Source of the DNA: Chalciporus piperatus
Taxonomy: Eukaryota; Basidiomycota; Agaricomycetes; Boletales; Boletaceae
Direction: 5' to 3'
NCBI GenBank assembly: GCA_038093975.1
Contig: JBBPTG010000050.1
Location: 97,149-161,148 of the forward strand
Length of the DNA stretch: 64,000 nucleotides
Positions 12,808 through 60,915 of the stretch are shown here, in pieces. Position 1 is the stretch's first letter; every line of letters starts with the position of its first letter. The notes below the pieces were generated by a model that saw nothing but the letters and a program-made list of their open reading frames with translations, was not told where the DNA came from and made no database searches. A program made the position numbers and the translations under genes.

Positions 12808-13370
12808 CTACCTAAGGGGTGGCCTACGGGAGACTAAGAAATTCCTCGTGGTAATGGACCGAATGCCCCGCCACGATGTCTCGTCGTGGATGTCTTCCGT
12901 CAACTTGACAACAATCACAAGGCTATAGAAGTCAGCGGGAACCTTGGGGTCATGGAATGCGAACTGGACTCTGTACTCCCAGGAACTCTTGGACCCATCC
13001 TCGGACTTGCTGAAGGACATCCAACCACTTTCCTTCGCACTCAGATCCAAGAACGTAGCTTCAACAGTGTTCTTTAAAGCAGACTCAACCTCTTCGGACA
13101 AGACGACATTGAGATCTTTGGTAAAATCTCCTATCACCGTGGCGATATTGATCGTCCCAGCGTGGTGTTGAGCGATCGTGTTCGAGTTCACCGTGTCGAA
13201 AGTCAGGTCAATGTCTGAGAAGGTATGCCATCAGTGGGAAATAATCCTAATGGTCAAAGTTGCCATCACCCGGGTAACCATTGACAGCGTCAAGGAAGGC
13301 TTTCCGGTCAAACCAAACGTGTCCGTCACTCACAACAACGTGGTGGCCAGAAAACTTTGCGACCTGCTTA
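12808..13370 (-). pseudogene. 5'-truncated gene, possible Cyt-like pore-former family
   Basis: On the minus strand an open frame (13191-12808) can be extended upstream through one GT-AG intron (about 13267 to 13213) to about 13370. There the reading frame runs straight into rpt6-derived sequence with no start codon. The remaining part has a helix followed by beta-rich sequence with SGWMSFS and YRVQFAFHD. This weakly recalls the C-terminal half of Cyt delta-endotoxin/volvatoxin-type fungal proteins; that family call is a guess. The loss of the N-terminal half at the exact edge of the duplicated rpt6 segment suggests the cassette insertion cut the gene. Confidence 0.35.
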
Positions 13371-13960
13371 GCACACCCTTGGGTTGGGCGATACTGAGGG
13401 ATTCGAAGAGTTCGGGGAGTTCGATGACTGATTTACTTGTCGAGACCACCGACCATCTCGTACGTGCTGTCGGGTACTTTCTCGACCATCATGAGCGATA
13501 CGATTGGGTCGACTTGGATCTTGTGGGTCGTGTAGCTATCCGAGCGGAGCGCGACGTGCTGTGACGGTGTCAGCGCCAGTCGAAGTCGACGACTATGAGA
13601 GGGACGCCGTGAGCACTGAGTAGAGCAGTGAGACAATCCTACTACCAGCTAAAATCGAAGCCGCGGAATTGTTGATTAATCAAACGACTCAGAATCTGAA
13701 ACGGGTGACTTGGAGGCACAGTGGAATGCGTTGAATGCGAGAGGTGTGTGCCGTTGTCTCTGTCGTGATTCTTGTGTGTGTGAGGCAAGTACTGTTATGT
13801 TGGGTGTCCGCATCATCATGATGGGATAGTGAGGGAGGAGTTGCAGTTGCTTCATGAACCAGCGAGTTATGTGCGCGAGGTGGTCAACGTCACGGGGAAG
13901 AAGAAGGTACAGCCTGAGGGGCCCAAGTATAGTACGTGTTGAATGCCTGCTGGTATCTTG
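13370..13960. pseudogene. rpt6 pseudogene A, scrambled by an internal inversion
   Basis: This is DNA similar to the intact rpt6 at 54748-56184. Part of the third exon lies on the minus strand at 13370-13634 (peptides [18 protein letters not shown] are readable). The first two exons with their intron lie on the plus strand at 13635-13935. The following bases (from 13941) again match the minus orientation. An approximately 300-bp inversion explains this. Introns are retained, so the copy arose from genomic DNA, not from mRNA. It carries a 5-bp insertion in exon 1 and deletions between GGLDKQ and ELFE that are also present in pseudogene B. It lies head-to-head with TPR-CHAT gene 1. Confidence 0.85.
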
Positions 13961-14262
13961 GACGAACGCGCAAGTGATCCGGGTGCTCACATCCTCCGAG
14001 TCCACAACTTCAAGCTTCAAACTTACAAGGTGCGCGACATCGGTGTCACCAAGGTACATATCATTCACAGTATGAAAGATAGACATGTACATGGGGTATA
14101 TACTAAAACCTCTCCAGAATGCGCCGTCCCCGAACCAACAGCCCTCTCACAGTGTTTCGAAGCTTGGCACGGATACTGTACCACGAGCATGCTGTTCTGG
14201 GGGTCCCTTTCTCCGTAACCACCTTCTTCCTTCTGTCGTTCAGTCCCCGCATACACACGACG
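13961..14262 (+). promoter_or_regulatory. Upstream region of TPR-CHAT gene 1
   Basis: Its 5' part is homologous to the rpt6 start-codon region. Later pieces (a segment containing ccagaatgcgccg, and the ccgcatacacacgacgg leader) recur before TPR-CHAT genes 2 and 3. The conservation fits promoter plus 5' leader carried along with the cassette. Confidence 0.5.
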
Positions 14263-14309
14263 GTGAGTGGATTGTATGTGAAGACATCGTCAATGCTCAA
14301 CGTTCGTAG
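14263..14309 (+). other. Predicted 5'UTR intron of TPR-CHAT gene 1
   Basis: A 47-base interval begins gtgagtgg and ends cgttcgtag, with a ctcaac branch-like site. The same donor and acceptor frame is conserved upstream of gene 2 (31435-31389) and gene 3 (56562-56612), which argues for a real intron in the leader. Confidence 0.55.
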
Positions 14310-14430
14310 GTCTGACATTGCTTACTTCAAGTCGCCGTCTTGTTTCTCACCATAACACCGTTTCCCCAATCGATCCATTTCATTGCCCTCCCTTGAAATT
14401 CACCTCTTCCTGCTCGTCCAGCCCACTTCC

Positions 14431-17400
14431 ATGTTTGATATCAACGAGGAAATTTCCCGCAAGCGTGCTGAGTTAGCACTTCTCCCCCAAGGACATCCTG
14501 ACCGAGCCAGGGTGCTAGAAAGCTTCGCGAATTCTCTCCTCCACCAATTCGAGCAGGTGGGGGGGATGTCAGGCCTCGAAGAGGCCATTGCCCTCCACAG
14601 CAATGCACTGCAACTTCGTCCGGACGGACATCCCTTGCGAGCCGTGTCATTAAACAGCCTCGCAATTGCCCTCTGGACTCGGGTCAGGCAGGTGGGGGGG
14701 TTATCTGACCTCGATGAAGCGATCACCCTCCTCCGCAGTGCATTGGCACTTCGTCCGGACGGACATTCTGATCGATCCAAATCGCTAAACAACCTTGCAA
14801 ATGCCCTCCATACTCGGTTCCAGCATGTGGGGGGGATATCTGATCTCGACGAGGCCATCGCGCTCCACCGCGATGCATTAGCACTTCGTCCCGACGGACA
14901 TCCCGATCGGTCCGTGTCATTAAACAACCTCGCTCTCGCCCTCTGGACTCAGTTCGGGCAGGTGGGGTTGTCCAACCTCGATGAAGTGATCGCCCTCCAC
15001 TGCAGTGCATTGGCACTTCGTCCGGACGGACATCCTGGTCGGACAATGTCATTAAACAACCTCGCTCTTGCCCTCTGGGCTCGGTTCGATCAGGTGGGGG
15101 GGTTGTCTGACCTCGATGAGGCCATCGCGCTCCACCGCGATGCATTAGCACTTCGTCCCGACGGACATCCCGATCGGTCCATGTCATTAAACAACCTCGC
15201 AAATGACCTCGAGACTCGGTTCGGGCAGGTAGGGGGGTTGTCTGACCTCAATGAGGCGATCACCCTCCACCGTGATGCATTGGTACTCCGTCCTGATGGA
15301 CATCCCAACCGATCCTCGTCATTAAACAACCTTGCAAATGTCCTCCAGACTAGGTTCGAGCAGGTGGGGGGGTTGTCTGACCTCGATGAGGTGATTGCCC
15401 TGCACCGCGATGCATTGGCACTTCGCCCAGAAGGTCATTCCCTCCGGTCCTGGTCATTAAACAACCTCGCAACTGCCCTTCGGAGTCGGTTCGGGCAGGT
15501 GGGACGGTTGTCTGACCTTGATGAAGCAATCACCCTCCACCGCAGCGCATTGGAACTTCGCCCGGACAGACATCCTGATCGGTCCGTGTCATTAAACAAC
15601 CTCGCAACTGCCCTCTGGACTCGGTTCGGGCAGCTGAGGGGGTTGTCTGACCTTGATGAAGCGATCACCCTCCACCGTGATGCATTAGCACTTCGTCCTG
15701 ACGGACATCCTGATCGGTCCATGTCATTAAACAACCTCGCTCTTGCCCTTCGGAGCCGGTTTAACCAGGTGGGGGGGTTGTCTGACCTTGACGAAGTGAT
15801 TGCCCTCCACCGCAATGCATTGGAACTTCGTCCGGACAGACATCCTGATCGGTCCATGTCATTAAACAACCTCGCAACTGCCCTCTGGGCTCAGTTCGAG
15901 GAGCTGGGAAGGTTGTCTGACCTTGATGAGGCAATTGCGCTCCACCGCAATGCACTGGAACTTCGTCCTGACGGACATCCCAACCGATCCTTGTCATTAA
16001 ATGACCTTGCAAGAGCCCTCTGTAGTCGGTTCGAGGAGCTGGGGGGAATGTTTGACCTGGACGAGGCAATCACCCTTCACCGCCATGCATTGGCACTTCG
16101 TCCGGATGGACATCCCGAACGATCTTCATCAGTGCGTGGTGTTGCATCTTGCCTGCTTCAGCACCCCCAGGGGTCCGAGAAGAATAGGGAAGAAGCATTC
16201 AACCTTTATTCCACACTCTCGGATCTGTCCCAATTGGTAACCTCATCTGACCTGGCTGCTGCCTGGGCCTGGGTTCAGGCGGCTGAACATGTTGGACACC
16301 ATACAACGCTCCCTGCCTATCAAACATCACTCCAGCTCCTCACTACTCATCTCGCCGCTCTCCCGTGTTTACCTCAGCATCTCACCATTCTGAAGAACCG
16401 CATGTCTTCCCTCGCGATGGATGCATTTTCGGCTTCAATTCGTCATGGCACCCTTACTGGTGCAGTCGAACTCCTCGAACAGGGCCGTGGGGTCTTTTGG
16501 AGCCAGCTCACTCGCCTCCGTTCCCCTGTTGACGAGGTTATCGTTTCTGGAGACAAGGGAAAAGAGTTGGGAGAAGGGTTTTTGTCGGTTTCTCGTGCGC
16601 TCCGTGATATTCTTGATTCCAACCCTCAAGATGATCGGGCATGGCGCCTTACCAATGAATTGCGAGAAATCGTGGACGACATCCGCCGGCTTCCTGGCCA
16701 TTCACGTTTCCTCCTCTCTCCACAGTTCTCAGCCCTTCAAAGCGCAGCGAGCGAAGGACCTGTCATCATCGTCAACGCCAGCCAGTATGGCTGTGACGCA
16801 CTCGTCGTTCTTCACAACAGAGAGCCCATCCACATTCCTCTTCGAATCCAGAAAGCACGGGTCAAGGAGTGGTCGGTGGATCTCGGCGAGATCACGAGGA
16901 AGGGCAAAATCCAAGATGTGCAAACAGAGCTCGTCGTGATTTTACGCGAGCTCTGGGATGATGTTGTTGCCCCTGTTGTTCAAGTTCTCGAGAAATTCTG
17001 TCCTCGTCGGTCAAGGATTTGGTGGTTGCCCACCACTGAGTTTTCTCTCCTCCCCCTTCACGCCGCCGGGGAATACAGGCGGAACAAACCACAATTCTCT
17101 GATCTCTACATCTCCTCTTACACCCCAACCTTGACTGCTCTTATTCGCTCTCGACACCCATTTGATTCGACGACACCAAAGACACGTTTCGTTGCAGTGG
17201 GGAATGGAGAATCTCCTGGAGAATCTACGCTCGTAAACGTCCATGCTGAGCTCGTCAGCATCATGGAGTCTGTCAACGCCCGCGCAACATTCACGTGCAT
17301 CGAAGGCCAGGATGCCCAAGTCGGGAGGGTCGGCCAAGAACTCCAAAAGTGTGAATTCGTTCACTTTGCCTGCCATGGGATCCCGAAGCCCGCTCTACCT

Positions 17401-17775
17401 TTCGAGTCCGGCTTCGCACTCTGTGATGGATTATTGACGATTCAAGATATCATCCAATACGACTTGCAGCACTCCAGACTTGCCACCCTGTCCGCTTGCC
17501 ATGCCACTGTCGGATACGAAGACAGTCCGGACGAGGCCATCCATCTCGCTGCAGCGATGCAGTTTGTCGGTTTCCGTTCCGTCGTCGGGACGATGTGGGC
17601 GGTAGGCGATGCTGAAGCGAACATGATTATGACGAAATTCTATCAGAACATGGTGGACATGTCTGGCCACCATGGCCTAGATCATACCCGTTCTGCGTTC
17701 GCGTTGCACAAGGCACTGAGGACTTTGAAGCTGTCACTTGATCAGCGGATCTTGTTTGTACACATCGGCGCGTAG
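14431..17775 (+). CDS. TPR-CHAT protein, gene 1
   Basis: A single open frame of 1114 residues from the ATG at 14431; an in-frame ATG at 14383 is less likely, because the paralogs all start at the same MxxINEEIS-like position. Residues about 40-580 are about twelve copies of a 45-residue tetratricopeptide unit (core LDEAIALHRDALALRPDGHP, then SLNNLA). A linker follows and then a C-terminal CHAT peptidase domain (caspase/separase clan). The CHAT dyad is present: HFACHG with the His at 17374-17376 and LSAC with the Cys at 17497-17499. CHAT domains are proteases that act in stress or immune signalling in other organisms; the substrate here is unknown. No signal peptide or transmembrane segment is seen. 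The gene is head-to-head with rpt6 pseudogene A. Confidence 0.9.
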   Translation: MFDINEEISRKRAELALLPQGHPDRARVLESFANSLLHQFEQVGGMSGLEEAIALHSNALQLRPDGHPLRAVSLNSLAIALWTRVRQVGGLSDLDEAITLLRSALALRPDGHSDRSKSLNNLANALHTRFQHVGGISDLDEAIALHRDALALRPDGHPDRSVSLNNLALALWTQFGQVGLSNLDEVIALHCSALALRPDGHPGRTMSLNNLALALWARFDQVGGLSDLDEAIALHRDALALRPDGHPDRSMSLNNLANDLETRFGQVGGLSDLNEAITLHRDALVLRPDGHPNRSSSLNNLANVLQTRFEQVGGLSDLDEVIALHRDALALRPEGHSLRSWSLNNLATALRSRFGQVGRLSDLDEAITLHRSALELRPDRHPDRSVSLNNLATALWTRFGQLRGLSDLDEAITLHRDALALRPDGHPDRSMSLNNLALALRSRFNQVGGLSDLDEVIALHRNALELRPDRHPDRSMSLNNLATALWAQFEELGRLSDLDEAIALHRNALELRPDGHPNRSLSLNDLARALCSRFEELGGMFDLDEAITLHRHALALRPDGHPERSSSVRGVASCLLQHPQGSEKNREEAFNLYSTLSDLSQLVTSSDLAAAWAWVQAAEHVGHHTTLPAYQTSLQLLTTHLAALPCLPQHLTILKNRMSSLAMDAFSASIRHGTLTGAVELLEQGRGVFWSQLTRLRSPVDEVIVSGDKGKELGEGFLSVSRALRDILDSNPQDDRAWRLTNELREIVDDIRRLPGHSRFLLSPQFSALQSAASEGPVIIVNASQYGCDALVVLHNREPIHIPLRIQKARVKEWSVDLGEITRKGKIQDVQTELVVILRELWDDVVAPVVQVLEKFCPRRSRIWWLPTTEFSLLPLHAAGEYRRNKPQFSDLYISSYTPTLTALIRSRHPFDSTTPKTRFVAVGNGESPGESTLVNVHAELVSIMESVNARATFTCIEGQDAQVGRVGQELQKCEFVHFACHGIPKPALPFESGFALCDGLLTIQDIIQYDLQHSRLATLSACHATVGYEDSPDEAIHLAAAMQFVGFRSVVGTMWAVGDAEANMIMTKFYQNMVDMSGHHGLDHTRSAFALHKALRTLKLSLDQRILFVHIGA

Positions 17776-18060
17776 TTTTGTTACTCTCGTCTGATGACCC
17801 TCCCTCTATGTACTTATGTACTACTAGGTGGTGTATCGGCTAATTATGATCGAGCATTTTGCTATGCGACAATTTTCTTCCTCGAATTTGAATGTGTCTC
17901 GTGGGTATTGACGAAATGCACGGGAAGGAGGAATCCTCCATCTCATGGTATGCCATACTACATAGTACATGCATGCATCATTCGGACAGGTTATTATATG
18001 CGCTTTCAACTCACAATCCCGGATTCATTCGTCCTGGAAGTTCCAATTGGGCAGTCACGG
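17776..18060 (+). repeat. 3' flank shared between TPR-CHAT genes 1 and 3
   Basis: The bases after the stop codon match those after gene 3 (60671-60910). Shared pieces include ctactaggtggtgtatcggc and the cgaatttgaatgtgtctc stretch. The similarity ends at about 18050, marking the downstream limit of the duplicated cassette. Gene 2 does not share it. Confidence 0.7.
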
Positions 18061-18967
18061 GGTTGCCAAAGCGCGTGAGGGAACCCACGGTGAAGGATTC
18101 GAGGTATCAATAGGAATGGGATTCTGAGAAGAAGGGTCGAGCAGATCCACATTCTCTCGATTCAGAGAACGCCTAGTTTCGGGAGTGTCAGCGTTGGAAG
18201 AGGAGTGGGATGAGTCGGCATAGTACGGGGCTTTCAGGAAAGACCTGGAAGGACCTCTGTTTGAAACGCATCCCTAACGAAGCAGGTTGGATGGCAGGGC
18301 ATCCAGGGCTTAGCCTGGCTCTGGCATCGCCATGTAGGATGGTATCATGATAATATTTGGAGCAAGGTCGGGAGCCCTCACCCACGGTTGAGTCTTGCAT
18401 TCGGTGGAAGGGTCAACGATTCCATACACTGCACCAAGCAGCGTGAAGAAAACTGAGGATTCGCTGGAAACGAGCTGCGTACATTTGCCAGTGCACAATG
18501 AAGAGGAAGATTTGGAAGAGAAAGGGCGCGAAGTGGTGGCTGAGGATGTTACTTACGCATTTGCGTATATCTATGATGGGCGCAGGATGAGTTATACATT
18601 CTCAACGGTGGGTGTTAACCTGGATGGCAATTGGTTGTACTTATCGTCAGGCTATGAAAGCCAAAGGGGCAGTTTCTCGACGAAGGTGTTGATCACCGCG
18701 CGGTCTCATGATAGTTGACCGAGGGAGCCGTCCGAGAAACGCAAATAATCATTCACAGATTTGATATCCCTACTGATCGCAAGCGTATGGGTATGACACA
18801 CGTACTTACTGGGGATGATCTTCGAAGCATGTCCAGCCGTCATACAGTTAGGAACGCGTTGCACGTATGCAGTCAACATGAGGCATTGAAGTGAGGTTGA
18901 GAGGTGGCTGGTAGAACTGTCTATCATTATGAACAAGAAGGTGGAGGGTCGAGTGGTACGCGATCCG
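18061..18967. other. Intergenic, nothing recognised
   Basis: A 107-codon plus-strand frame (18395-18718) has no recognisable domain and no supporting context. Otherwise this is AT/GC-mixed sequence between TPR-CHAT gene 1 and the 3' end of the L16 gene. Confidence 0.35.
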
Positions 18968-19757
18968 CTATGATGTCTGAGCAGGTTCCGCTGTAACGAC
19001 AGGTGTTGGAGCGGGGATTGGAGGAGGGGTAGGCTCTATCAGCATGCTTCCTAGCCGAGGTGGTGCATTCCGATTTATGAACTCGTATGTGGTCGGCAGC
19101 TTAGCAGCACCGAGGCGCAGCGCTGTGAAGGGTGTCAGATGACGCAGAAAGAAAATACACCATAACCATTACCTTCTCGTGCAATCTCTTCGCGGATAGG
19201 TACACCACCGACCTCGAAAATGACGCGTCCAGTGGGGACACTAGATAATATTGAGACATTTGCGGACCATATCGAGAGGTCCCGTCCATACCGAGTTGCC
19301 CAGAACTCAAAGGTTCCTTTACCCTTACCCATACGTGTTTCGTTACCCTAGATTCGCAGGGTGTAAGTCTGGTACTCCCTCCACCCACTGCACGAGTACG
19401 CGCCTTTATGCAGACAGGAATGTCGGGGAACACCCGCAAGTAAACTTTGGCACCTTTGACAACCTTGATAGCTCGCTTGATGACTTCCTCGGCAGTGGTG
19501 AGCTGCTTTGCGGTGAACCGAACGCCTTGACCTTTAATTCTGATACCATACTCTCCATACGAGAGTGTAGTGCCCCGCGTAGACCCGCCGATGGGGACTG
19601 GAATGCGACCTTTCTGACGTTTGGGGTACTTGACTTTTCGCGGGGCAATTTGGTTGCGGAAACGGGCACGAAATGTACCGTTAGGGACGGTCACTGGAAA
19701 GGTCGCATTTCGTAGTCTCGGCAGCGCGTTAGAGAGAGAAAAGAATGAAAACATCAC
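18968..19757 (-). CDS. MRPL16: Mitochondrial large ribosomal subunit protein uL16m
   Basis: Four exons (19757-19404, 19347-19292, 19240-19173, 19122-18968) give 210 residues. The N-terminal 35 residues resemble a mitochondrial presequence. The core has the L16 hallmarks: [55 protein letters not shown] and [10 protein letters not shown], then [12 protein letters not shown]. The C-terminus adds a Pro/Thr-rich tail. The first intron (19403-19348) starts with GC rather than GT; only this reading gives the conserved [11 protein letters not shown]. Bacterial-type L16 sits near the peptidyl-transferase centre and A-site finger. The gene is divergent from PRP3 across 152 bp. Confidence 0.92.
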
Positions 19758-19909
19758 TGCCAGTCACTGCCAGGTCTGATGTACTTCGCGTGCAAGTCTC
19801 GAGAGCGGAAAATGTGGTGACCCCCCTTGGAGGGGTTACCTCATTTAAACCATCCAGAGGTCGACCCTTGGCCGTTGTCGACCACTCTGACTGTCTGTTG
19901 GTCATTGCC
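19758..19909. promoter_or_regulatory. Bidirectional promoter between mrpl16 and prp3
   Basis: 152 bp between two divergent start codons. It contains near-palindromic accccccttggaggggttacc around 19820. Both genes must be initiated within it or in the 5' ends of each other. Confidence 0.5.
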
Positions 19910-28585: not shown

Positions 28586-31258
28586 CTACGCGCCGATGTG
28601 TACGAACAAGATCCGCTGACAAAGTGGCAGTCTCACAGTCTTCAATGCCTCGTGCAACGCGGACGCAGCACGGGTATGATCTAGACCACGATGTCCAGAC
28701 TTGTTCACCATATTCCGATAGAATTCTGTCATGATCTTCTTCGCTTCAGCATTGCCCCCCGCCCACATCGTCCCGACGACAGAACGGAAACCGACAAACT
28801 GCATCGCCGCAGCTAAGTGGATGGCATCGTCCGGACTGTCCTTGTATCCGACAGCGGCATGGCAAGCGGACAAAGTGGCAAGTCGGGCGTGCTGCAAGTC
28901 ATGTTGGATGATGTCTTGGATCTTCAATAACCCGTCACTGAGTGCGAAGCCGGACTCGAACGGTGCTTCAGGCTTCGGGATCCCATGGCAAGCAAAGTGA
29001 ACAAACTCGCTCTGTCCGAGAGCTGTACCAACCCTGCCGACTTGGGCATTCTGGCCTTCGAGGCATGTAAATATTGCGCGGGCGTCGACAGACTCCACGA
29101 TGCTGACAAGCTCAGCATGGACGTGCTCAAGTTTGGATTCTCCGGGAGTCTCTCCATTCCCCACTGCAGCGAATCGTGGCCTTCGCGTGGCAGAATCCAC
29201 TGGTCGTCGAGAGCGAATAAGAGCAGCCAAGGTCGGGGTGTAAGAGGACACGTAGAGATCGGAGAATTTCGGCTTGAATGGCCTGTATTCCCCAGCGGCG
29301 TGGAGAGGGAGGAGGGAAAACTCGGCGGTGGGCAACCACCAAATCCGTGACTGACGAGGACAGAATTTCTTGAGAACTTGAACAATGGGGGAAACAACAT
29401 GATCCCAGAGCTCGCGTAAAATCACGACCAGCTCTGTTTGCACGTCTTGATTTTTTCCCTTCTTCGTGATCTTGCCAAGAGCCACCGACCACTCCTTGAC
29501 GCGTGCCTGCTGGATTTGAAGAGGAATGTGGATGGGGTCTCTATCGTAAAAAACCACGAGTCCATCACAACCATACTGGCTGGCGTTGACGACGACGACA
29601 GGTCCTTCGCTCGCCGCCCTTTGAAGGGCTGAGAACTGTGGAGAGAGGAGGAAACGTGAATGGCCAGGAAGCCGGCGGATGTCGTCCACGATTTCTCGCA
29701 ATTCGTTGGTAAGGTGCCATACCCGATCATGTTGAGGGTTGGAATCAAGAACGTTACGAAGTGCGCTAGAAACCGACAAGTACTTTTCGCCCAACTCCTT
29801 TCCCTTGCCTCCAGAAAAAATAACTTCGTCGACAGGGGAGCATAGGCGAGTTAGCTGGCTCCAAAAGACCCCACGGCCCTGTTCGAGGAGTTCGACTGCA
29901 CCGATAAGGGTGCCATGACGAATAGAAGCCGAAAATGCGTCGATTGCGAGGGAAGACATACGGGTCTTCAGAATAGTAAGGTGTTGAGGTAAACATGGGA
30001 GAGCGGCGAGATGAGTAGTGAGGAGGCGGAGTGATGTTTGGTAGGCGGAGAGCGTCGTACAATGTCCGAGTTGTTCAGCCGCCTGAACCCAGGCTCGGGC
30101 AGCGGCAAGGTCGGCTGAGGATACGGATTGGGAGAGATCCGAGAGTGTGGAATAAAGGTTGAATGCTTCTTCCCTATCCTTGTCGGACCCCTGGGGGTGC
30201 TCAAGGAGGCAAGATGCAACAGCTTGCACTGATGAGGATCGTTCGGGATGTCTGTCTGGAAGAAGTTTCAATGCATTGCGATGGAGGACAATGGCCTCCT
30301 CGAGGTCAGAAATCCCCCCCACCTGCTTGAACCGAACCTGGAGGGCAAGTGCGATGTTGTTTGAAAACAAGGATCTGAGGGAATGACCTTCCGGACAAAT
30401 GTTCAATGCGTTTCGATGGAGGGCAATGGCCTCATTAAGATCAGACATCCCCTCCAGCCGCTGGAACCGAATCCAGAGGGCAGTTGCGAGGTTGTTTAAT
30501 GACATGGATCGATCAGGATGTCCATCCGGATGAAGTTCCAATGCATTACGGTGGAGAGCAATCGCCTCATCGAGATCAGATATCCCCCCCAGCTGCTTGA
30601 ACCGAGTAAAGAGGACATTTGCAAGCTTGTTTAATGACATGGACCGATCAGGATGCCCGTCCGGACGAAGTGCCAATGCATTGCGGTCGTGGGCAATTGC
30701 CTCATCAAGGTCAGACATCCCCCCCAGCTGCTTGAACCGACTAAAGAGGGCGGTTGCGAGGTTGTCAAATGACAAGGACCGATCAGGATGCCCGTCCGGA
30801 CGAAGTTCCAATGTATCACGGAGGAGGGTAATGGCCTCGTCCAGGTCAGATGACCCCCCCAGCAGATGGAACCGAGCCTGGAGGGCAAGAGCGAGGTGGT
30901 GTAATAGCGAGTGTCGGAGGGGATGACCTTCTGGACGAAGTGTCAATGCATTGCGGACGTGGGAAATACCCTCATCGAAGTCAGAGATCCCCCCAACCTG
31001 GTTAAATCGAGTCCAGAGGGCAGTTGAGAGGTTGTTTAATGACAAGGATCGATCAGGATGTCCATCCGGACGAAGTTCCAATGCACTGCGGTGGAGAGCA
31101 ATCGCCTCATCGAGATCAGACATCACCCCCAGCTGCTTGAACCGAAAGGAGAAGTTATTCGCGAGGCTTTCTAGCGCCCTGGCTCGGTCAGGATGACCAT
31201 GGGGGAGAACTGCTAATTTAGCACGCTGGTGGGAAATTTCCTCGTTGATCTCGGACAT
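28586..31258 (-). CDS. TPR-CHAT protein, gene 2
   Basis: An uninterrupted frame on the minus strand encodes 890 residues from MSEINEEIS at 31258; the frame is open further to 31345, but the paralogs start here. About seven 45-residue TPR units, fewer and more diverged than in genes 1 and 3, precede the linker and a complete CHAT domain. HFACHG and LSACHA, the expected His and Cys, are retained. Identity with gene 1 is high through the linker and CHAT region. The 5' leader and predicted intron match those of gene 1. The gene is head-to-head with rpt6 pseudogene B. Its function is presumed to be a peptidase effector with a repeat-based sensor; targets are unknown. Confidence 0.9.
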   Translation of the reverse strand: MSEINEEISHQRAKLAVLPHGHPDRARALESLANNFSFRFKQLGVMSDLDEAIALHRSALELRPDGHPDRSLSLNNLSTALWTRFNQVGGISDFDEGISHVRNALTLRPEGHPLRHSLLHHLALALQARFHLLGGSSDLDEAITLLRDTLELRPDGHPDRSLSFDNLATALFSRFKQLGGMSDLDEAIAHDRNALALRPDGHPDRSMSLNKLANVLFTRFKQLGGISDLDEAIALHRNALELHPDGHPDRSMSLNNLATALWIRFQRLEGMSDLNEAIALHRNALNICPEGHSLRSLFSNNIALALQVRFKQVGGISDLEEAIVLHRNALKLLPDRHPERSSSVQAVASCLLEHPQGSDKDREEAFNLYSTLSDLSQSVSSADLAAARAWVQAAEQLGHCTTLSAYQTSLRLLTTHLAALPCLPQHLTILKTRMSSLAIDAFSASIRHGTLIGAVELLEQGRGVFWSQLTRLCSPVDEVIFSGGKGKELGEKYLSVSSALRNVLDSNPQHDRVWHLTNELREIVDDIRRLPGHSRFLLSPQFSALQRAASEGPVVVVNASQYGCDGLVVFYDRDPIHIPLQIQQARVKEWSVALGKITKKGKNQDVQTELVVILRELWDHVVSPIVQVLKKFCPRQSRIWWLPTAEFSLLPLHAAGEYRPFKPKFSDLYVSSYTPTLAALIRSRRPVDSATRRPRFAAVGNGETPGESKLEHVHAELVSIVESVDARAIFTCLEGQNAQVGRVGTALGQSEFVHFACHGIPKPEAPFESGFALSDGLLKIQDIIQHDLQHARLATLSACHAAVGYKDSPDDAIHLAAAMQFVGFRSVVGTMWAGGNAEAKKIMTEFYRNMVNKSGHRGLDHTRAASALHEALKTVRLPLCQRILFVHIGA

Positions 31259-31388: not shown

Positions 31389-31435
31389 CTACGAACGTTG
31401 AGCATCGACGATGTCCTGACATACAATCCACTCAC
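31389..31435 (-). other. Predicted 5'UTR intron of TPR-CHAT gene 2
   Basis: A 47-base interval reading gtgagtgg ... cgttcgtag on the minus strand, the same length and ends as in gene 1. Confidence 0.55.
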
Positions 31436-31655
31436 CGTCGGTCCGTCGCGTGGATCCGGGCATTGAACGACAGAAAGAGAAGCAGTTACGGTAAAAGGAC
31501 AGCGTCTTGATTCCTCGTCGTACAGTACCCGTGCCTAAGCCCGCTTCGACTCTCAAAACCGGCGCATTCTGAAGAGGTTTTAGAGTATATCCCCATCACT
31601 CATCTTCATACCCTGGCCCATACCAACACTCCAAGACGCCAACAAGCATTCAATC

Positions 31656-32670
<1,015 letters not shown>

Positions 32671-47560: not shown

Positions 47561-48344
47561 ATGTTATGTACGGAGGCAACGGCACGGTGATGCTGTATAT
47601 AGCACCACAGGACTCGGAGTGGTGCATGTTCCGCAACAGGCGGCTATATGGATCATTCGGCGGAGTATGATGGTTGTTGAATGAATCAACCTCTACTGCC
47701 AGTGAATCACCCCAGGCCATCCGAGTCTCAATCTCGTGCGTAGTTCTATCCTGCTCACACTGTTTGCCAGTCGCACTAGAACTCGATGCCCATTGCAGAT
47801 CCCTTCAGGGAGCATCAACGCATATCCATCGAGCTACCATGAGCCGCGGACAGTCAGTATATACCTCACGGACAATGGACGTGTTGATCAAGTGTTGTGC
47901 TTTACAGGCAACTCGGTCTACAGAACATCCCGGTCCTGTTCGACGATTCCATGGATACCGAGTAAGTGAAATGCACCAGTTGCCCCCTACGATCATTGAT
48001 AAGGGCTTAAGTTTCAGAAACCCAGCGACTGCATCGCTCGAGGGGTTCGACGAGTCGAACTACTCCAATCTCAAACAATCTTGGTTGACGTACGCACACT
48101 AGCGCCAATGCACCTCTCGATCTGATGGATGTTTGGCTCTAGTGGGCTTTCTCAACGTTCCGAGATCATTCCAACAGATTTAGTTGCTTTGCAGTCTGTA
48201 AAGTGCGCGACATGACCTCCCTTGCTCAGCCCCATCTAATACGATCATTCCTGCAGCATCGAGAATCTCCTCGACACTGTACGATCGAAGATTCGTTTTC
48301 GTGTCTTCAATGATCTTCCTTCGCGCGTTCTAAAGCTGCCTGAG
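47561..48344. other. Upstream region of the HET gene
   Basis: The last 65 bases are open in frame with the HET protein (KIRFRVFNDLPSRVLKLPE) behind a possible acceptor near 48257-48262, so an additional 5' exon may exist. No separate gene is supported. Confidence 0.35.
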
Positions 48345-49799
48345 ATGAAGCTTGTGGAAAGAGGCTCAGTGGTGGAATATCTTATCCATCACAAGCTGCA
48401 CGATGTGGTCGAAGAGATTCGCTACAGGGAAGCGGCGCAGCTCAGTGGCTCATCGGTTCCTCCCACGACCTTGGACCGAGACCACCTGCGTGATCACGCC
48501 ATCTCTACACTCGTGGACGATCTGACCAAATTTGCGACTCTATCGCATTCATGGGAACAGCACGAGCCGAGCTACGATGACTTCCTTCAGGGGCGCAGTG
48601 TCAATACAAAGGGATATAAAAAGCTGAAGGAATTCTGCAGGATCGCCCACGAGAAATATGGAGTAGAGTTCGCCTGGGCAGACACCGTTTGTATCAACAA
48701 GCTCAGCAGTTCTGAGCTCGACGAATCAATCCGGTCTATGTTTACGTGGTATCGTGCATCATTCATATGCATCATCTATGTTTCAGGAACCCATTCTCTA
48801 CTAGAATTACCCTTCGACCGGTGGTTCACGCGGGGTTGGACTCTGCAGGAACTTCTTGCGCCGCTACGAATCAAATTCTACAACAAGGACTGGCACCAGC
48901 TCACCGATCTTCGTAATGACAAGTTAGATTGCCCAGAAAATCCTTCCTCCACCCAGCTCTCTTCTCTTGACCCAAAGTATGCCCTCCAGCTACGCCTTCT
49001 CAGCGATGGGATCTCCACGGCAACCGGCATCGACATGGATTATATCCGCTCCTTCCAACCTGGCCTTCGTGACCCACCGTTTCCTGAACGCATGAAATGG
49101 ATTGCTCGAAGAGAAACAACGAGGGCGGAGGACAAGTCGTACTCAATGATGGGAGTATTGGGGGTCAGCATGTCCGTCGCATATGGAGAAGGCCCAGAGC
49201 GCGCTTTCTTCCGCTTAATGCGGGAAGTCCTCGAGATGGACTACTCTGACAGCTGGTTCTTGTGGACAGGAAAACCCATTCCATCCCACATTCACCCATC
49301 AAACATGATCCCCTCTTCGCCCGCGGGCTATCTGTCATGGGATCCGAAGTTCGACCGAGAGACAGGTTTGGACGAAAGAGAGCCTCTCAGTCTCACAAAC
49401 ATCGGGATGGAGATTCAGGTGCTGGTTATCCTTGCCAAAGTGGTCCACCCCCTTCTCGCCTCGAGCACGCCCGATGGAGCTGACATCACCTCCCCTTTCT
49501 TCGATGGTACCATGAAGATGGCCGGGATCCCACGCGAACAGGAGAATCAAGAGGACGCGTTTGCGCTCGGCATCATGGACTATGACTTTGTAGGTCAGGT
49601 CCCAGAGTGGGTATATGCTTTGTTGTTGCGCAGGCCGCGGACCAGGGCACGGTGGATGAGGTGCGAGGCAAGGGATATCATTGCCTTTCGTCCCAATGCG
49701 GCATTTCGCCAGAGAGCGGTGAAGGGGTGGGCAAGGGTTGAGACACCCGCGAAGGGCAATGCTATACATATGATGCGAGTTCAGACTCTGTACTTATGA
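48345..49799 (+). CDS. HET-domain (heterokaryon incompatibility) protein
   Basis: A 484-residue frame from ATG 48345; coding-like sequence in the same frame extends upstream to about 48263, so an earlier exon is possible. Residues 63-175 form a HET domain: FATLSHSW, VEFAWADTVCINK, a SSELDESIRSMFTWYRAS helix, and DRWFTRGWTLQELLAP with FYNKDW. Residues about 265-300 (EDKSYSMMGVLGVSMSVAYG) are the usual HET-associated extension. HET domains trigger regulated cell death after non-self recognition between fungal individuals. No NACHT, WD40 or TPR part is attached. The next gene, a membrane protein in the same direction 420 bp downstream, may be a partner. Confidence 0.9.
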   Translation: MKLVERGSVVEYLIHHKLHDVVEEIRYREAAQLSGSSVPPTTLDRDHLRDHAISTLVDDLTKFATLSHSWEQHEPSYDDFLQGRSVNTKGYKKLKEFCRIAHEKYGVEFAWADTVCINKLSSSELDESIRSMFTWYRASFICIIYVSGTHSLLELPFDRWFTRGWTLQELLAPLRIKFYNKDWHQLTDLRNDKLDCPENPSSTQLSSLDPKYALQLRLLSDGISTATGIDMDYIRSFQPGLRDPPFPERMKWIARRETTRAEDKSYSMMGVLGVSMSVAYGEGPERAFFRLMREVLEMDYSDSWFLWTGKPIPSHIHPSNMIPSSPAGYLSWDPKFDRETGLDEREPLSLTNIGMEIQVLVILAKVVHPLLASSTPDGADITSPFFDGTMKMAGIPREQENQEDAFALGIMDYDFVGQVPEWVYALLLRRPRTRARWMRCEARDIIAFRPNAAFRQRAVKGWARVETPAKGNAIHMMRVQTLYL

Positions 49800-54615: not shown

Positions 54616-54747
54616 GGCGTCGATAATCAGAGGATGCTAAGTACGAGATCGAGACTGTGGACTGCACCACCGGATGACAAATCATTATTCACACGGACGC
54701 GTCATCGCTGGCACCGGCAAGGAAAGACTGCGTGTACAGCATGTACA

Positions 54748-56184
54748 CTACGAGAACAACTTGTTCACAGACGTATTACCCTCCTGGTTCTTCTTCAACA
54801 CCTTGGCAATCGCAAACTCGAAATCCTCTTGCGTGACATGCTGACGACGCTCGCGAAGAGCGTACATACCAGCCTCGGTACAGATACCCCGCACTTCAGC
54901 ACCAGAACATTGTCCCATTTTCTCAGCGAGTGCCTTGAGATCAATACCACGTTGCAGTGACATCTAATCATCATCATAAGCGAGTGAACTGCGCATACAA
55001 TCACCGCAGCACGCACCTTGCGAGAGTGAATCCGCAGGATACTGACACGCGCCTCGGGACCTGGCGGAGGGAACTCGATCTTCCTGTCAATCCGTCCAGG
55101 ACGAAGCAGCGCAGAATCCAAAATATCTGTCATACCCAATCAGCACACATCCATCTGAACGTCACTACACTCACCTATTCGATTCGTAGCCATGATCACC
55201 TTGATATTCTTCGTCGCCTCGAACCCATCCAACTGATTCAACAACTCCAACATCGTCCTCTGCACCTCCGAATCTCCACCACCAGACCCACTCTCCCCTC
55301 TCGAACTCCCAATCGAATCAATCTCATCCATGAAAATAATACTCGGGGCATGCTCTCTCGCCATCACGAACAACTCTCGAACCATACGACTACCTTCTCC
55401 AATGTACTTTTGAACCAGCTCTGATCCAGAAACACGAATGAACTTGCAATCCGTGTGATGCGCGACAGCACGTGCGAGCAGGGTCTTGCCAGTACCCGGA
55501 GGACCGTACAAGAGCACACCCTTGGGTTGAGCAATACCAAGAGATTCGAAGAGTTCGGGGTGCTTGACGGGGAGCTCGATGACTTCTTTGATTTCCTTGA
55601 TTTGCTTGTCGAGGCCACCGACCATCTCGTACGTGCTGTCGGGTACTTTCTCGACCATCATGAGCGATACGAGTGGGTCGACTTTGTTGGGTAGGATCTT
55701 GTGGATCGTGTAGCTATCCGAGCGGAGCGCGACGCGCTGAGATGGCGTCAGGACCGATAAATCGATCTCCGAGTCAAAGTCGACGACTGTGAGAGGGACG
55801 CCGTGAGCAGGTAGCTGAGGCTCGATATATAGAGCAGCGAGACACATACTATATTTCCCCTCAGGCTGTACCTTTACCAAAACCTTCTTCTTCCCCATGA
55901 CCTTGACCACCTCGCCCACATAACTCGCCGGTTCGTGGAGCAACTGCAACTCCTCCCTAAGCAGCCTCACTTTCCGACACCCAAGACATCAGTACACCAC
56001 GCACGCGGGTAACCCGACGGGGGGGACGCCACTCACCTCTCGCATTCAACGCATTCCGCTGTGCCTCCAACCGTCTCAGATTCTGGGTCTTTTGATTAAT
56101 CAACAATTCCGCCGCTTCAATTTTAGCTTGGTAGTAGGATTGAATGCCAGCTGGCGTCTTGGACGGGTGTGTGAGTGCTGGCAT
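54748..56184 (-). CDS. RPT6: 26S proteasome regulatory subunit Rpt6 (PSMC5, AAA ATPase)
   Basis: Five exons, with introns near 56036-55970, 55852-55793, 55175-55129 and 55015-54963, starting [15 protein letters not shown] at 56184. An N-terminal coiled coil ([15 protein letters not shown]) and the OB-domain stretch ([20 protein letters not shown]) lead into the AAA domain. This has GPPGTGKT (Walker A), [11 protein letters not shown] (Walker B), MATNR (sensor 1) and [15 protein letters not shown] with the Arg-finger region. The lid and C-terminus follow, up to [10 protein letters not shown]. Rpt6 is one of six ATPases that unfold substrates into the 20S core. This is the only intact copy in the window and must supply the essential function. 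It is head-to-head with TPR-CHAT gene 3. Confidence 0.96.
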
Positions 56185-56561
56185 GGTCCACTGGGGGTAT
56201 GAAGACGAAGGAGACAGAGATTGACAGCTGTTGGTGACGCAAGCACTCGAAGATCTCGACGCGTAGTCCAGTTTCCCACGGTACTCAAATCTTTGCCTTG
56301 TGAATATTTGAATCGTGATCATGATATCCCAACAGTGTCATTCACGCTATGAAAACAGTCATATACTTACATGCAGAGGTATGCTCCAAGACCTTTCCAG
56401 AATGCGCCGTGACTGAGTTCTGAGTGCTTTGTACTGATGACCGGTTTTCAGAGTAGAAGCTGGAGACCACGAGGAATCAACATGTTGTGCTGTGTAGTCC
56501 CTTTTCAGTCCCGTCGCTGTGTTCCTCCCTTCTCTCTTCGGTCCCCCATACATACGCAACG
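56185..56561. promoter_or_regulatory. Shared rpt6 / TPR-CHAT gene 3 intergenic region
   Basis: About 550 bp lie between the divergent starts of rpt6 and gene 3. Pieces of it (the ccagaatgcgccg segment and the leader before the 5'UTR intron) recur in front of genes 1 and 2. This fits a bidirectional promoter that was copied with the cassette. Confidence 0.5.
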
Positions 56562-56612
56562 GTGAGTGGATTGTATGTGCGGACATCGTGTTGTTGCTCA
56601 ACGTCTCCATAG
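56562..56612 (+). other. Predicted 5'UTR intron of TPR-CHAT gene 3
   Basis: 51 bases from gtgagtgg to ctccatag; ends and branch-like ctcaac are conserved with genes 1 and 2. Confidence 0.5.
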
Positions 56613-56736
56613 GTCTGACGCTGCTTGCTTCGAGCTACTGGCTTCCTTCTCACCCTAACACCATTTCTCCAATCAATCCATCACTTTCCTCCCCCTCATG
56701 CGTCGCCTCTTCCCCTGGGCTTTTAAGCCCAGTGCC

Positions 56737-59700
56737 ATGTCTAAGGTCGATAAGGACATTTCCCGCTTGCGTGCTAAATTAGCACGTCTCCCCCAAGGTC
56801 ATCCCGACCTATCCTCGTCTTTCAACAACCTCGCTCTTGCCCTCTGGACTCTGTTCGAGCGGGTGGGGGGGATGTCTGACCTCGATGAGGCGATTACCCT
56901 CCACCGCAATGCATTGCAACTTCGTCGGGACGGACATCCCGACCGATCCATATCATTAAATGGCCTTGCTGTTGCCCTCTGGGCTCGTTTCCGGCAGGTG
57001 GGGGGGATGGCTGTCCTCGATGAGGCGATTGACCTACACCGCAATGCATTAGCACTTCGTCCGGACGGACATCCCGACCGATCCATATCATTATACGGCC
57101 TCGCTATTGCCCTCTGGACTCGGTTCGGGAAGGTGGGGGGGATGGCTGTTCTCAATGAGGCGATTACCCTCCACCGCAATGCATTGCAACTTCGTCGGGA
57201 CGGATGAGGCGATTACCCTCCACCGCAATGCATTGCAACTTCGTCGGGACGGACATCCCGACCGATCCATATCATTAAACGGCCTCGCTGTTGCCCTCTG
57301 GACTCGGTTCGGGGAGGTGGGGGGGATGGCTGTCCTCGATGAGGCGATTGACCTACACCGCAATGCATTAGCACTTCGTCCGGACGGACATCCCGACCGA
57401 TCCATATCATTATACGGCCTCGCTATTGCCCTCTGGACTCGGTTCGGGAAGGTGGGGGGGATGGCTGTTCTCAATGAGGCGATTACCCTCCACCGCAATG
57501 CATTGCAACTTCGTCGGGACGGACATCCCGACCGATCCATATCATTAAACGGCCTCGCTGTTGCCCTCTGGACTCGGTTCGGGGAGGTGGGGGGGATGGC
57601 TGTCCTCGATGAGGCGATTGACCTACACCGCAATGCATTAGCACTTCGTCCGGACGGACATCCCGACCGATCCATATCATTAAACGGCCTCGCTGTTGCC
57701 CTCCACACTCGGTTCGAGCGGGTGGGGGGGATGTCTGACCTCGATGAGGCGATTACCCTCCACCGCAAGGCATTGGCACTTCGTCCGGACGGACATCCCG
57801 ACCGGTTCAAGTCATTAAACAACCTCGCAAATGCCCTCCAGACTCGGTTCGGGGAGGTGGGGGGGATGGCTGTCCTCAATGAGGCGATTGACCTCCACCG
57901 CAATGCATTGGCACTTCGTCCGGACGGACATCCCGACCGATCGGGGTCATTAAACAACCTCGCAAATGCCCTCTGGACTCGGTTCGGGGAGGTGGGGGCC
58001 CTCTGGACTCGGTTCGGGAAGGTGGGGGGGATGGCTGTTCTCAATGAGGCGATTACCCTCCACCGCAATGCATTGCAACTTCGTCGGGACGGACATCCCG
58101 ACCGATCCATATCATTAAACGGCCTCGCTGTTGCCCTCTGGACTCGGTTCGGGGAGGTGGGGGGGATGGCTGTCCTCGATGAGGCGATTGACCTACACCG
58201 CAATGCATTAGCACTTCGTCCGGACGGACATCCCGACCGATCCATATCATTATACGGCCTCGCTATTGCCCTCTGGACTCGGTTCGGGAAGGTGGGGGGG
58301 ATGGCTGTTCTCAATGAGGCGATTACCCTCCACCGCAATGCATTGCAACTTCGTCGGGACGGACATCCCGACCGATCCATATCATTAAACGGCCTCGCTG
58401 TTGCCCTCTGGACTCGGTTCGGGGAGGTGGGGGGGATGGCTGTCCTCGATGAGGCGATCACCCTCCACCGCAATGCATTGGCACTTTGTCCGCACGGACA
58501 TCCCGACCGGTTCAAGTCATTAAACAACCTCGCAAATGCCCTCCAGACTCGGTTCGGGGAGGTGGGGGGGATGGCTGTCCTCAATGAGGCGATTGACCTC
58601 CACCGCAATGCATTGGCACTGCGTCCGGATGGACATCCCGAACGATTCTCATCAGTGCGTGGTGTTGCATCTTGCCTGCTTCAGCACCCCCAAGGATCCG
58701 CGAAGTATAGGGAAGAAGCATTCAACCTTTATTCCACACTCTCGGATCTGTCGCAATCAGTAACCCCAGCCGACCTGGCTGCTGCCCGAGCCTGGGTTCG
58801 CGCGGCTGAAGCATTTGCACACTGTACGACACTATCCGCCTATGAAACATCACTCCGCCTCCTCACTACTCATCTCGCTGCTCTCCCGTGTTTACCTCAG
58901 CATCTTATTGTTATGAAGCACTGCATGTCCTCCCTCGCCATGGACGCATTTTCGGCTTCTATTCGTCATGGCACCCTTACTGGTGCAGTCGAGCTCCTCG
59001 AACAGGGCCGTGAACGATTCTCATCAGTGCGTGGTGTTGCATCTTGCCTGCTTCAGCACCCCCAAGGATCCGCGAAGTATAGGGAAGAAGCATTCAACCT
59101 TTATTCCACACTCTCGGATCTGTCGCAATCAGTAACCCCAGCCGACCTGGCTGCTGCCCGAGCCTGGGTTCGCGCGGCTGAAGCATTTGCACACTGTACG
59201 ACACTATCCGCCTATCAAACATCACTCCGCCTCCTCACTACTCATCTCGCTGCTCTCCCGTGTTTACCTCAGCATCTTATTGTTATGAAGCACTGCATGT
59301 CCTCCCTCGCCATGGACGCATTTTCGGCTTCTATTCATCATGGCACCCTTACTGGTGCAGTCGAGCTCCTCGAACAGGGCCGTGGGGTCTTTTGGAGCCA
59401 GCTGACTCGCCTCCGTTCCCCTGTTGGCGAGGTCATCGCTTCTGGAGACAAGGGAAATGTGTTGGGAGAAAGGTTCCTGTCGGTTTCTCGTGCACTTCGT
59501 CACATCCTTGATTCCAAGCCTCAACACGATAGGGCATGGCACCTTACGAATGAATTGCGAGAAATCGCGGACGACATCCGCCGGCTACCTGGCCATTCAC
59601 GTTTCCTCCTCTCTCCACAGTTCTCAGCCCTTCGAAGAGCAGCAAGCGAAGGACCTGTCATCATCGTCAACTCCAGCCAGTTTGGCTGTGATGCAATCGT

Positions 59701-60670
59701 CGTCTTTCACACTAGAGACCCCATCCATGTTCCTCTTCAAATCCAGAAAGCACGCGTCAAGGAGTGGTCGGTGGATCTCAACAAGATCACGAAGAAGGGC
59801 CAAAATCAAAATGTACAAACAGAGCTCGTCGTGATTTTACGCGAGCTCTGGGATCACGTTGTTTCCCCAATTGTTCAGGTCCTCGAGAAATTCTGTCCTC
59901 GTCGGTCAAGGATTTGGTGGTCGCCCACTGCGCGGTTTTCTCTCCTCCCTCTTCACGCCGCCGGGGAATACAGGCGGAACAAACCGACATTCTCTGATCT
60001 CTACATCTCCTCTTACACCCCAACCTTGACTGCTCTCATTCGCTCTCGACGCCCATTGGATTCGACCACGCGAAAGCCGCGTTTCGTTGCAGTGGGGAAT
60101 GGAGAGACTCCCGGCGAGGCTACGCTTGAACACGTCCATGCCGAGCTCATCAGCATCAGGGAGTCTGTCGACGCCCACGCAACCTTCACATGCATCGAAG
60201 GTCAGGATGCCCACGTCGGCAGGGTTGGCCAAGAACTCCAAAAGTGCGAATTCATTCACTTTGCCTGCCATGGAATCCCCAAGCCCAAACTACCTTTCGA
60301 GTCCGCCTTCGCACTCAGTGACGGGCTACTGAAGATTCAAGATATCATCCAATACGACTTGCAGCACTCCCGACTTGCCACCCTGTCCGCTTGTCATGCC
60401 ACTGTTGGATACAAGCACAGTCCGGACGAGGCCATCCATCTCGCTGCAGCGATGCAATTTCTCGGTTTCCGTTCTGTCGTCGGGACGATGTGGGCGGTGG
60501 GCGATGTTGAAGCGAAGATCATTATGACGGCATTCTATCGGAACATGGTTGGCAAGTCTGGCGATCGTGCTCTAGATCATACCCATGCTGCGTTCGCGTT
60601 GCACAGGGCACTGAGGACTGTGAAGCTGTCACTTGATCAGCGGATCTTGTTCGTACACATCGGCGCGTAG
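56737..60670 (+). CDS. TPR-CHAT protein, gene 3 (reading frame interrupted)
   Basis: The N-terminal frame starts MSKVDKDISRLRAKL at 56737 and ends at a stop at 57205-57207. The rest, in another frame, is open from 57107 to 60670. The break is caused by a 49-bp tandem duplication (57157-57205 repeated at 57206-57254). About fourteen 45-residue TPR units, many nearly identical, precede the linker and a complete CHAT domain with HFACHG and LSACHA. An in-frame 372-bp duplication (58640-59011 and 59012-59383) repeats part of the linker. One TPR near 57990-58030 is a short hybrid. Either this is a recent pseudogene, or the 49-bp unit is spliced out, or the assembly collapsed or expanded a repeat. 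The 1187-residue downstream frame could still be translated. Confidence 0.75.
56870..58640 (+). repeat. Tandem array of 135-bp TPR-coding units
   Basis: The basic period is 135 bp (45 codons). Alternating unit types form a 270-bp higher-order repeat: the block beginning near 57228 recurs near 58068 with no differences that I could see over about 270 bp, and most of it recurs at 57498. Such homogeneity contrasts with gene 2 and points to recent recombination within the array. Confidence 0.85.
57157..57254 (+). repeat. 49-bp tandem duplication causing the frameshift
   Basis: The 49 bases starting gaggcgattaccctccaccg occur twice back to back. 49 is not a multiple of three; the second copy puts a TGA in the upstream frame and moves the reading frame by one. 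Confidence 0.9.
58640..59383 (+). repeat. 372-bp in-frame tandem duplication in the linker
   Basis: The two 372-bp units (124 codons) differ at only about two positions that I could see (Glu/Gln in YETS/YQTS, and an Arg/His change), so the event is recent. It joins LLEQGR directly to ERFSSVRG and leaves the frame intact. Confidence 0.9.
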
Positions 60671-60915
60671 TTTTGTTACCCTCGTTTGGTCATTGTGTTG
60701 CTCCCATGTACTACTAGGTGGTGTATCGGCTATGTATGATCGAGCACTTCGCTATGTGACATTTTCTTCTTCGAATTTGAATGTGTCTCATAGACATCGG
60801 CGAAATGCACGGGAATCTTCCAATAGCAAAGATTTCAGCAAAACTACATAGTACATACGTGATTATATCCGCCTTCAACTCAAAATCCATTGCGCTGCGG
60901 TTCGCTGGCTAGTCG
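60671..60915 (+). repeat. 3' flank shared with TPR-CHAT gene 1
   Basis: Same sequence as 17776-18060 with substitutions and one larger deletion; marks the downstream edge of the cassette duplication. Confidence 0.7.

What the first reader, a model, noticed from the sequence alone, without database searches (positions are those of the whole stretch)
13370..60915. Three head-to-head rpt6 / TPR-CHAT cassettes
An rpt6 gene or pseudogene stands divergently next to a TPR-CHAT gene at 13.4-17.8, 28.6-32.7 and 54.7-60.7 kb, with the same intergenic landmarks and predicted 5'UTR intron each time. The pseudogenes keep introns, so the copies come from genomic DNA. A proteasome ATPase promoter that has been spread together with a caspase-like peptidase gene is, as far as I know, not a described arrangement. 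One idea is that the constitutive rpt6 promoter drives the immune-type gene.
Basis: partly seen in the sequence, partly recalled or inferred. Interest (0 to 1): 0.85.

Follow-up and report, generated by a model that had tools for sequence, protein, structure and literature searches.

The report
Duplicated CHAT genes with rpt6 scraps
In a mushroom-forming fungus, a family of caspase-like, probably immune-type genes has been copied several times, and some copies dragged along broken pieces of the neighbouring proteasome gene; this looks like ordinary duplication, not a newly wired gene control.

Summary
The window holds one intact rpt6 gene (54748-56184, minus strand, 401 aa). Decayed rpt6 pieces with introns stand beside the other two TPR-CHAT genes (13370-13939, part of it inverted; 31630-32669). 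A further TPR-CHAT gene with two rpt6 pieces lies on contig C239 of the same genome.

The main interpretation is not supported. The shared intergenic landmark, including the predicted 5'UTR intron, belongs to the TPR-CHAT subfamily: an intron-start pattern has ten exact sites in the genome, all at TPR-CHAT genes, and five of these show no rpt6 upstream. The rpt6-side intergenic stretch is largely missing from the three copies with broken rpt6. The pieces are pseudogenes with partly shared lesions.

Best explanation: DNA-level duplication and recombination in an expanding TPR-CHAT family of a Boletales fungus, with rpt6 fragments as passengers. The CHAT regions are under purifying selection. 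Whether the intact rpt6/TPR-CHAT pair shares a promoter could not be tested. Interest is modest.

The parts
54748..56184 (-). Intact rpt6 (26S proteasome regulatory subunit 8, AAA ATPase), 5 exons (56037-56184, 55850-55969, 55175-55786, 55017-55126, 54748-54963), 401 aa; the only complete copy found in this genome
   Evidence: Spliced model; PDB best matches are 26S subunit 8 / RPT6 (one exon-spanning frame); 97% identity over full length to a Paxillus rubicundulus protein; genome search
56185..56736 (.). Divergent intergenic region between intact rpt6 and TPR-CHAT gene 3; the CHAT-side part is the TPR-CHAT family 5' region, the rpt6-side part is largely absent from window loci 1 and 2
56562..56612 (+). 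Predicted 5'UTR intron of TPR-CHAT gene 3
   Evidence: no transcript data
56737..60670 (+). TPR-CHAT gene 3 (CHAT PF12770 109.6 bits in the open frame 57053-60667). Frame broken near 57205 at a perfect 49-bp tandem repeat (57155-57253); also a 99% tandem repeat of 372 bp (58640-59384)
   Evidence: could be real decay or assembly error
31630..32669 (+). rpt6 pseudogene of locus 2 (parent 56163 to 54994 with internal losses), introns 1 and 3 recognisable, start codon lost, several frameshifts
28586..31258 (-). TPR-CHAT gene 2, 890 aa, open from ATG to stop; CHAT 116.3 bits; His/Cys motifs kept
31389..31435 (-). Predicted 5'UTR intron of TPR-CHAT gene 2
13370..13615 (-). rpt6 pseudogene of locus 1, middle piece (parent 55809-55513), in the head-to-head orientation
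13634..13939 (+). rpt6 pseudogene of locus 1, 5' piece (parent 56142-55842, with intron 1), inverted relative to the other piece
14431..17775 (+). TPR-CHAT gene 1, 1114 aa, open from ATG to stop; about 11.7 copies of a 135-bp TPR unit, then CHAT 107.6 bits
14263..14309 (+). Predicted 5'UTR intron of TPR-CHAT gene 1

Best explanation
This is birth-and-death expansion of a TPR-CHAT (repeat plus caspase-like peptidase) gene subfamily. One member stands divergently beside the single complete rpt6 gene. DNA-level segmental duplications copied that member together with part of the neighbouring rpt6. The rpt6 part became inactive early, was copied again as a pseudogene, and has decayed and been rearranged, with tracts exchanged between copies. 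Some copies (the C35 pair) may have left without any rpt6. Each TPR-CHAT gene carries its own ~240-bp 5' region with a 5'UTR intron, the likely promoter and leader in all copies. The proteins probably act as repeat-based sensors whose CHAT peptidase triggers cell death or defence. SHOWN: homology, intron retention, partly shared lesions, decay of the rpt6 pieces, purifying selection on the CHAT region, and a common 5' region at genes without detectable rpt6. INFERRED: order of events, promoter location, splicing of the 5'UTR intron, immune role.
For: One complete rpt6. rpt6-derived DNA was found only on C50 (this contig) and C239, apart from weak matches on C10 and C21 (these searches score only the best candidates). 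Introns kept. Shared lesions by one MAFFT alignment: a 16-bp exonic gap at parent 55771 in 4 of 4 pieces covering it (ambiguous in locus 2), a 1-bp gap at 55289 in 3 of 3, a 26-bp gap at 55596 in 2 of 4 (locus 1, locus 2). Pseudogenes against parent: 7.8/9.6/17.4% differences at codon positions 1/2/3, as expected with one constrained branch; between pieces the excess at position 3 mostly vanishes (position 3 highest in 5 of 8 pairs, position 2 in 3 of 8; e.g. loc2 v C239a 14.6/14.2/18.3%). CHAT-region Ka/Ks 0.22-0.35 in 21 of 21 pairs of seven genes. Intron-start pattern, written from the ten aligned genes: ten exact sites in the genome, these same ten, control 0, plus one site with one mismatch on C105. 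No rpt6 in the 1.5-3.7 kb upstream of five of the ten. A seven-gene group holding all five rpt6-derived copies plus the C35 pair has 100/100 support in the DNA tree of ten.
Against: The clades are not clean. The three window genes as one clade are rejected (p-AU 0.001) and the five rpt6-derived copies as one clade are weakly rejected (p-AU 0.038) (I had already seen the protein tree when naming these groups). The protein tree puts locus 2 with C26/C49 (84/80) and locus 1 with C35 (87/86). Between loci 1 and 2 the CHAT region is further apart (Ks 0.335) than the rpt6 pieces (JC 0.20 and 0.28), so CHAT and rpt6 parts may not share one history. The 26-bp lesion groups locus 1 with locus 2, unlike the DNA tree. 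So tract exchange, or alignment error, must be invoked. No expression data; no related genome.
Confidence: 0.85

Rival explanations
1. Promoter capture: the constitutive rpt6 promoter was duplicated with, and drives, the TPR-CHAT genes.
For: Divergent gene pair with 552 bp between start codons at the intact locus. C239 copy 1 keeps 72.5% identity over parent 56455-56212 although it has no rpt6 body. The exact string CAGAATGCGCC lies upstream of the 5' region at all three window loci, inside a 37-column stretch alike at loci 1 and 2 (89%).
Against: The 5' region and intron occur at five TPR-CHAT genes with no detectable rpt6. The rpt6-side stretch is largely missing in locus 1, locus 2 and C239 copy 2. 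CAGAATGCGCC was not found in C239 or in L033-L048.
Confidence: 0.07
2. Processed (retroposed) rpt6 pseudogenes that landed near TPR-CHAT genes by chance.
For: Fragments are truncated and frameshifted.
Against: Introns 1 and 3 remain recognisable, and locus 2 and C239a also align upstream of the start codon.
Confidence: 0.01
3. A transposable element captured the rpt6-CHAT segment and spread it.
For: Flanks of the copies hold repeated sequence and potassium-channel gene scraps shared between C50 and C239.
Against: Unit ends differ from copy to copy. The one flanking repeat tested genome-wide (window 6900-8100) has nine matching pieces, itself included: eight on C50 and C239, one on C18, so it is not a high-copy element in that search. 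No systematic search for terminal repeats or target-site duplications was made.
Confidence: 0.07

Closest known systems
Fungal TPR-CHAT proteases linked to gasdermin cell death (reviews PMC10197012 and PMC12881547; passages seen)
   Same: TPR repeats plus CHAT caspase-like domain; a HET-domain gene lies in the same window
   Different: No gasdermin (PF04598) match in this genome, though that model may miss fungal gasdermins; the neighbour here is a proteasome gene, mostly as pseudogene
Birth-and-death immune gene families with passenger pseudogenes (general pattern, recalled; PMC10197012 as seen speaks of such evolution for fungal gasdermin and NLR genes)
   Same: Local and dispersed duplicates, mosaic tracts, repeat-number differences, broken copies
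   Different: The passenger is a single-copy proteasome gene
Bacterial Craspase TPR-CHAT (PDB 8d9f, 7x8a)
   Same: Weak sequence match over the His/Cys part of CHAT (E 1.2e-4 and 1.4e-4)
   Different: Very distant; no CRISPR context (a fungal gene)

Membership tests
TPR-CHAT protein | TPR array followed by CHAT domain above the Pfam cut-off | tested here: met
   3 of 3 window proteins: CHAT 107.6, 116.3, 109.6 bits against cut-off 24, with TPR families; protein 3 is the open frame 57053-60667 as it stands
TPR-CHAT protein | His and Cys of the peptidase dyad | tested here: met
   ACHG and LSACH motifs in all three translations; for protein 1, aligned with CHG and GACE of the Craspase CHAT chain. 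Their catalytic role is recalled, not tested.
Gasdermin-CHAT two-gene cell-death cluster | Gasdermin gene nearby | tested here: inconclusive
   PF04598 finds none in the genome; its only control hit was a below-cut-off one in E. coli, so the search had no working positive control
Rpt6 (26S proteasome subunit 8) | Full-length match to RPT6 rather than other Rpt subunits | tested here: met
   for the intact gene only
Processed pseudogene | Introns absent | tested here: not met
   intron 1 (3 copies) and intron 3 (2 copies) aligned in the pseudogenes
Bidirectional-promoter gene pair | Both genes transcribed from one shared promoter region | not testable with these tools
   no transcript data; only the divergent layout at 54748-60670 is seen

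The most novel reading that the evidence does not exclude
At the intact locus rpt6 and a TPR-CHAT gene share a bidirectional promoter, so that a proteasome-linked expression state once set the output of the founder immune-type gene, and remnants of that control (the CAGAATGCGCC box) still act in the window copies.
Probability: 0.06. Interest if true: 0.5.

Novelty: new member of a known kind. Interest (0 to 1): 0.22.

Why it matters
It corrects an attractive but unsupported regulatory reading. It also gives a well-marked case in which decaying pieces of a single-copy gene serve as tags for tracing how a fungal immune-type gene family duplicates, moves and exchanges tracts, and it isolates a conserved 5'UTR intron as the real family landmark.

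Tried and rejected
Retroposition: introns are kept. Functional rpt6 paralogues: frameshifts, a lost start codon in locus 2, in-frame stops in locus 2, C239a and locus 1, little position-3 excess between pieces. Cassette as a genome-wide arrangement: rpt6 sequence, intact or broken, lies beside 4 of the 10 genes with the shared 5' intron; the genome has 46 CHAT matches, some of them parts of one gene. Allelic copy: C239 and the window match in scrambled pieces, so C239 does not look like the other haplotype. Structured RNA: no Rfam family in the window at gathering thresholds. Gasdermin partner: none with PF04598. A first splice model of rpt6 used a wrong acceptor for intron 2 and was corrected. 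Literature: seven searches. Two listed nothing; 24, 28, 44 and 45 listed one or two papers each; 51 listed 10 of 96 and could not match 'basidiomycet' as a whole word. No listed title or abstract start concerned rpt6 beside CHAT genes or CHAT genes in Boletales; of papers I saw only passages of two reviews. Synteny in related fungi could not be tested: the genome has no relatives in the tool. No structure prediction was run.

Full report
WHAT IS THERE. The window is the last 64 kb of contig C50 (161,148 bases) of a 35.5-Mb, 484-contig genome. Among the 120 Rpt6 relatives listed, the highest identities over the full length are to Boletales proteins (Paxillus rubicundulus 97%; Scleroderma, Pisolithus and Suillus 96%); the two rows ranked first by E-value are an insect and a rodent entry at 80% and 84%. 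Named TPR-CHAT relatives include Rhizopogon, Boletus and Lanmaoa. So this is very probably a Boletales fungus. The window has one complete rpt6 gene at 54748-56184 on the minus strand: five exons, 401 aa, best PDB matches 26S subunit 8/RPT6. A six-frame search of the genome with the protein lists 45 matches: the gene itself exon by exon, the pseudogene pieces, and AAA matches on other contigs at 36-65% identity, which I take for other AAA ATPases and did not examine one by one.

TPR-CHAT GENES. Gene 1 (14431-17775 +, 1114 aa) and gene 2 (28586-31258 -, 890 aa) are open from ATG to stop. Gene 3 (56737-60670 +) is frame-broken near 57205 at a perfect 49-bp tandem repeat and holds a 99% tandem repeat of 372 bp. 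Such near-perfect repeats among diverged TPR units may be assembly errors. All three carry CHAT (107.6, 116.3, 109.6 bits, cut-off 24) after TPR matches, with ACHG and LSACH motifs; for protein 1 these align with the Craspase CHAT chain. The genome gives 46 CHAT matches, some being parts of one gene.

RPT6 PIECES. A DNA search of the genome with the rpt6 region returned ten matches: the gene itself, four more on C50, three on C239, and two weak ones on C10 and C21 (66% and 71%) that I take for other proteasome ATPases. Locus 2 keeps pieces of parent 56163-54994; locus 1 keeps two pieces, the 5' one inverted; C239 keeps parent 56186-55168 in one piece (C239a) and parts of 55751-55041 in another (C239b). 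Intron 1 can be aligned in locus 1, locus 2 and C239a, intron 3 in locus 2 and C239b. By the MAFFT alignment the pieces carry 11 (locus 2), 8 and 8 (C239a, C239b) and 2 plus 3 (locus 1) frameshifting exonic indels; misaligned ends inflate these counts. Shared lesions: a 16-bp gap in 4 of 4 pieces covering the site (ambiguous in locus 2), a 1-bp gap in 3 of 3, and a 26-bp gap in 2 of 4. The pieces therefore descend at least in part from an already broken copy. Against the parent, codon positions 1/2/3 differ by 7.8/9.6/17.4%. Between pieces, position 3 is highest in 5 of 8 pairs and position 2 in 3 of 8, with small differences in most. This fits decay without constraint, perhaps after a short constrained stage. 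Exons are 86-90% and introns 67-72% identical to the parent, with one 28-base intron stretch at 86%.

WHOSE PROMOTER. BLAST of each window intergenic region against the held loci finds the same CHAT-proximal stretch at C35 (two genes), C26 (two), C49 (one) and C239 (two) as well as the three window loci. Alignment of the ten shows a predicted 47-53-nt intron starting GTGAGT (9 of 10) or GTAAGT (1 of 10). Mean pairwise identity is 0.85 in the intron, 0.70 in the 75 columns before and 0.80 in the 75 after. A pattern for the intron start, written from these ten and allowing two mismatches, gives 11 sites in the genome: these ten without mismatch and one with one mismatch on C105 that I did not examine; the reversed control gives none. 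BLAST of 1.5-3.7 kb upstream of the five C35, C26 and C49 genes finds no rpt6: only 12-18-base matches at E 0.085 or worse by DNA, none by protein. Of the rpt6-side stretch 56185-56460, C239 copy 1, which has no rpt6 body, keeps most (72.5%). Locus 1 keeps 74 aligned columns (E = 0.001), C239 copy 2 a 25-base match, and locus 2 a short box plus the bases next to the lost start codon. What the TPR-CHAT genes share is thus their own 5' region.

HISTORY. In the DNA tree of the last 1.65 kb of the ten genes, seven lie on one side of a 100/100 branch: locus 1, locus 2, locus 3, the two C239 genes and the two rpt6-free C35 genes. The C26 and C49 genes lie on the other side; the root is not inferred. 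Holding the three window genes together is rejected (p-AU 0.001), as locus 3 sits with the C239 genes; holding the five rpt6-derived copies together is weakly rejected (p-AU 0.038). I had seen the protein tree before naming these groups, which weakens the tests. That protein tree (21 rows; pieces under 300 residues dropped, so one C26 gene is missing) places locus 2 with C26/C49 (84/80) and locus 1 with C35 (87/86). One 280-column tract of locus 3 and C239 copy 2 is 98.6% identical, against at most 93.8% in the other five tracts, which suggests gene conversion. CHAT-region Ka/Ks is 0.22-0.35 in 21 of 21 pairs of seven genes with an open frame there (C26 and C49 genes left out). Between loci 1 and 2, Ks of the CHAT region (0.335) exceeds the distance of their rpt6 pieces (0.20 and 0.28), another sign that the parts have partly separate histories. 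The simplest account is one rpt6-linked ancestor, several duplications with a decaying rpt6 passenger, loss or non-transfer of rpt6 in the C35 pair, and tract exchange. The order of events is inferred.

FUNCTION. [quoted passage not shown] passages seen). For this genome a defence or cell-death role is inference from the family and from the HET gene at 48.2-49.8 kb. No gasdermin was found with PF04598, which is weak evidence.

VERDICT. The layout is real; the regulatory reading is not supported; the arrangement looks like an ordinary product of duplication in an expanding gene family. What could still surprise is promoter use at the one intact divergent pair.

Noticed in passing
14263-14309, 31389-31435, 56562-56612 and seven other TPR-CHAT genes: The predicted 5'UTR intron is better conserved (0.85 mean pairwise identity) than the 75 columns on either side (0.70, 0.80), which is unusual for an intron and may mean a regulatory role.
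   Followed up: partly
57155-57253, 58640-59384: Perfect 49-bp and 99% 372-bp tandem repeats inside TPR-CHAT gene 3, the first at a frame break; possibly assembly errors.
   Followed up: no
about 59560-59840; C239 about 18270-18550: A tract 98.6% identical between locus 3 and C239 copy 2, against at most 93.8% in the other five tracts; looks like recent gene conversion. Places are estimated from alignment columns 560-840.
   Followed up: partly
26105-27301; C239:9782-11006; C239:24362-25055: A potassium-channel-type gene (Ion_trans_2) whose 3' end and downstream sequence are also copied upstream of the two C239 TPR-CHAT genes.
   Followed up: no
2.0-8.1 kb, 32.7-35.3 kb; C239:11.0-13.5 kb: Locally repeated sequence of unknown nature shared between the left end of the window, the flank of locus 2 and C239.
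   Followed up: partly
48240-49799: HET-domain (heterokaryon incompatibility) gene between TPR-CHAT genes 2 and 3.
   Followed up: no
C239:14.3-16.4 kb and 34.6-36.7 kb: Two repeat-rich stretches in inverted orientation, 94.8% identical, one at the contig end.
   Followed up: no
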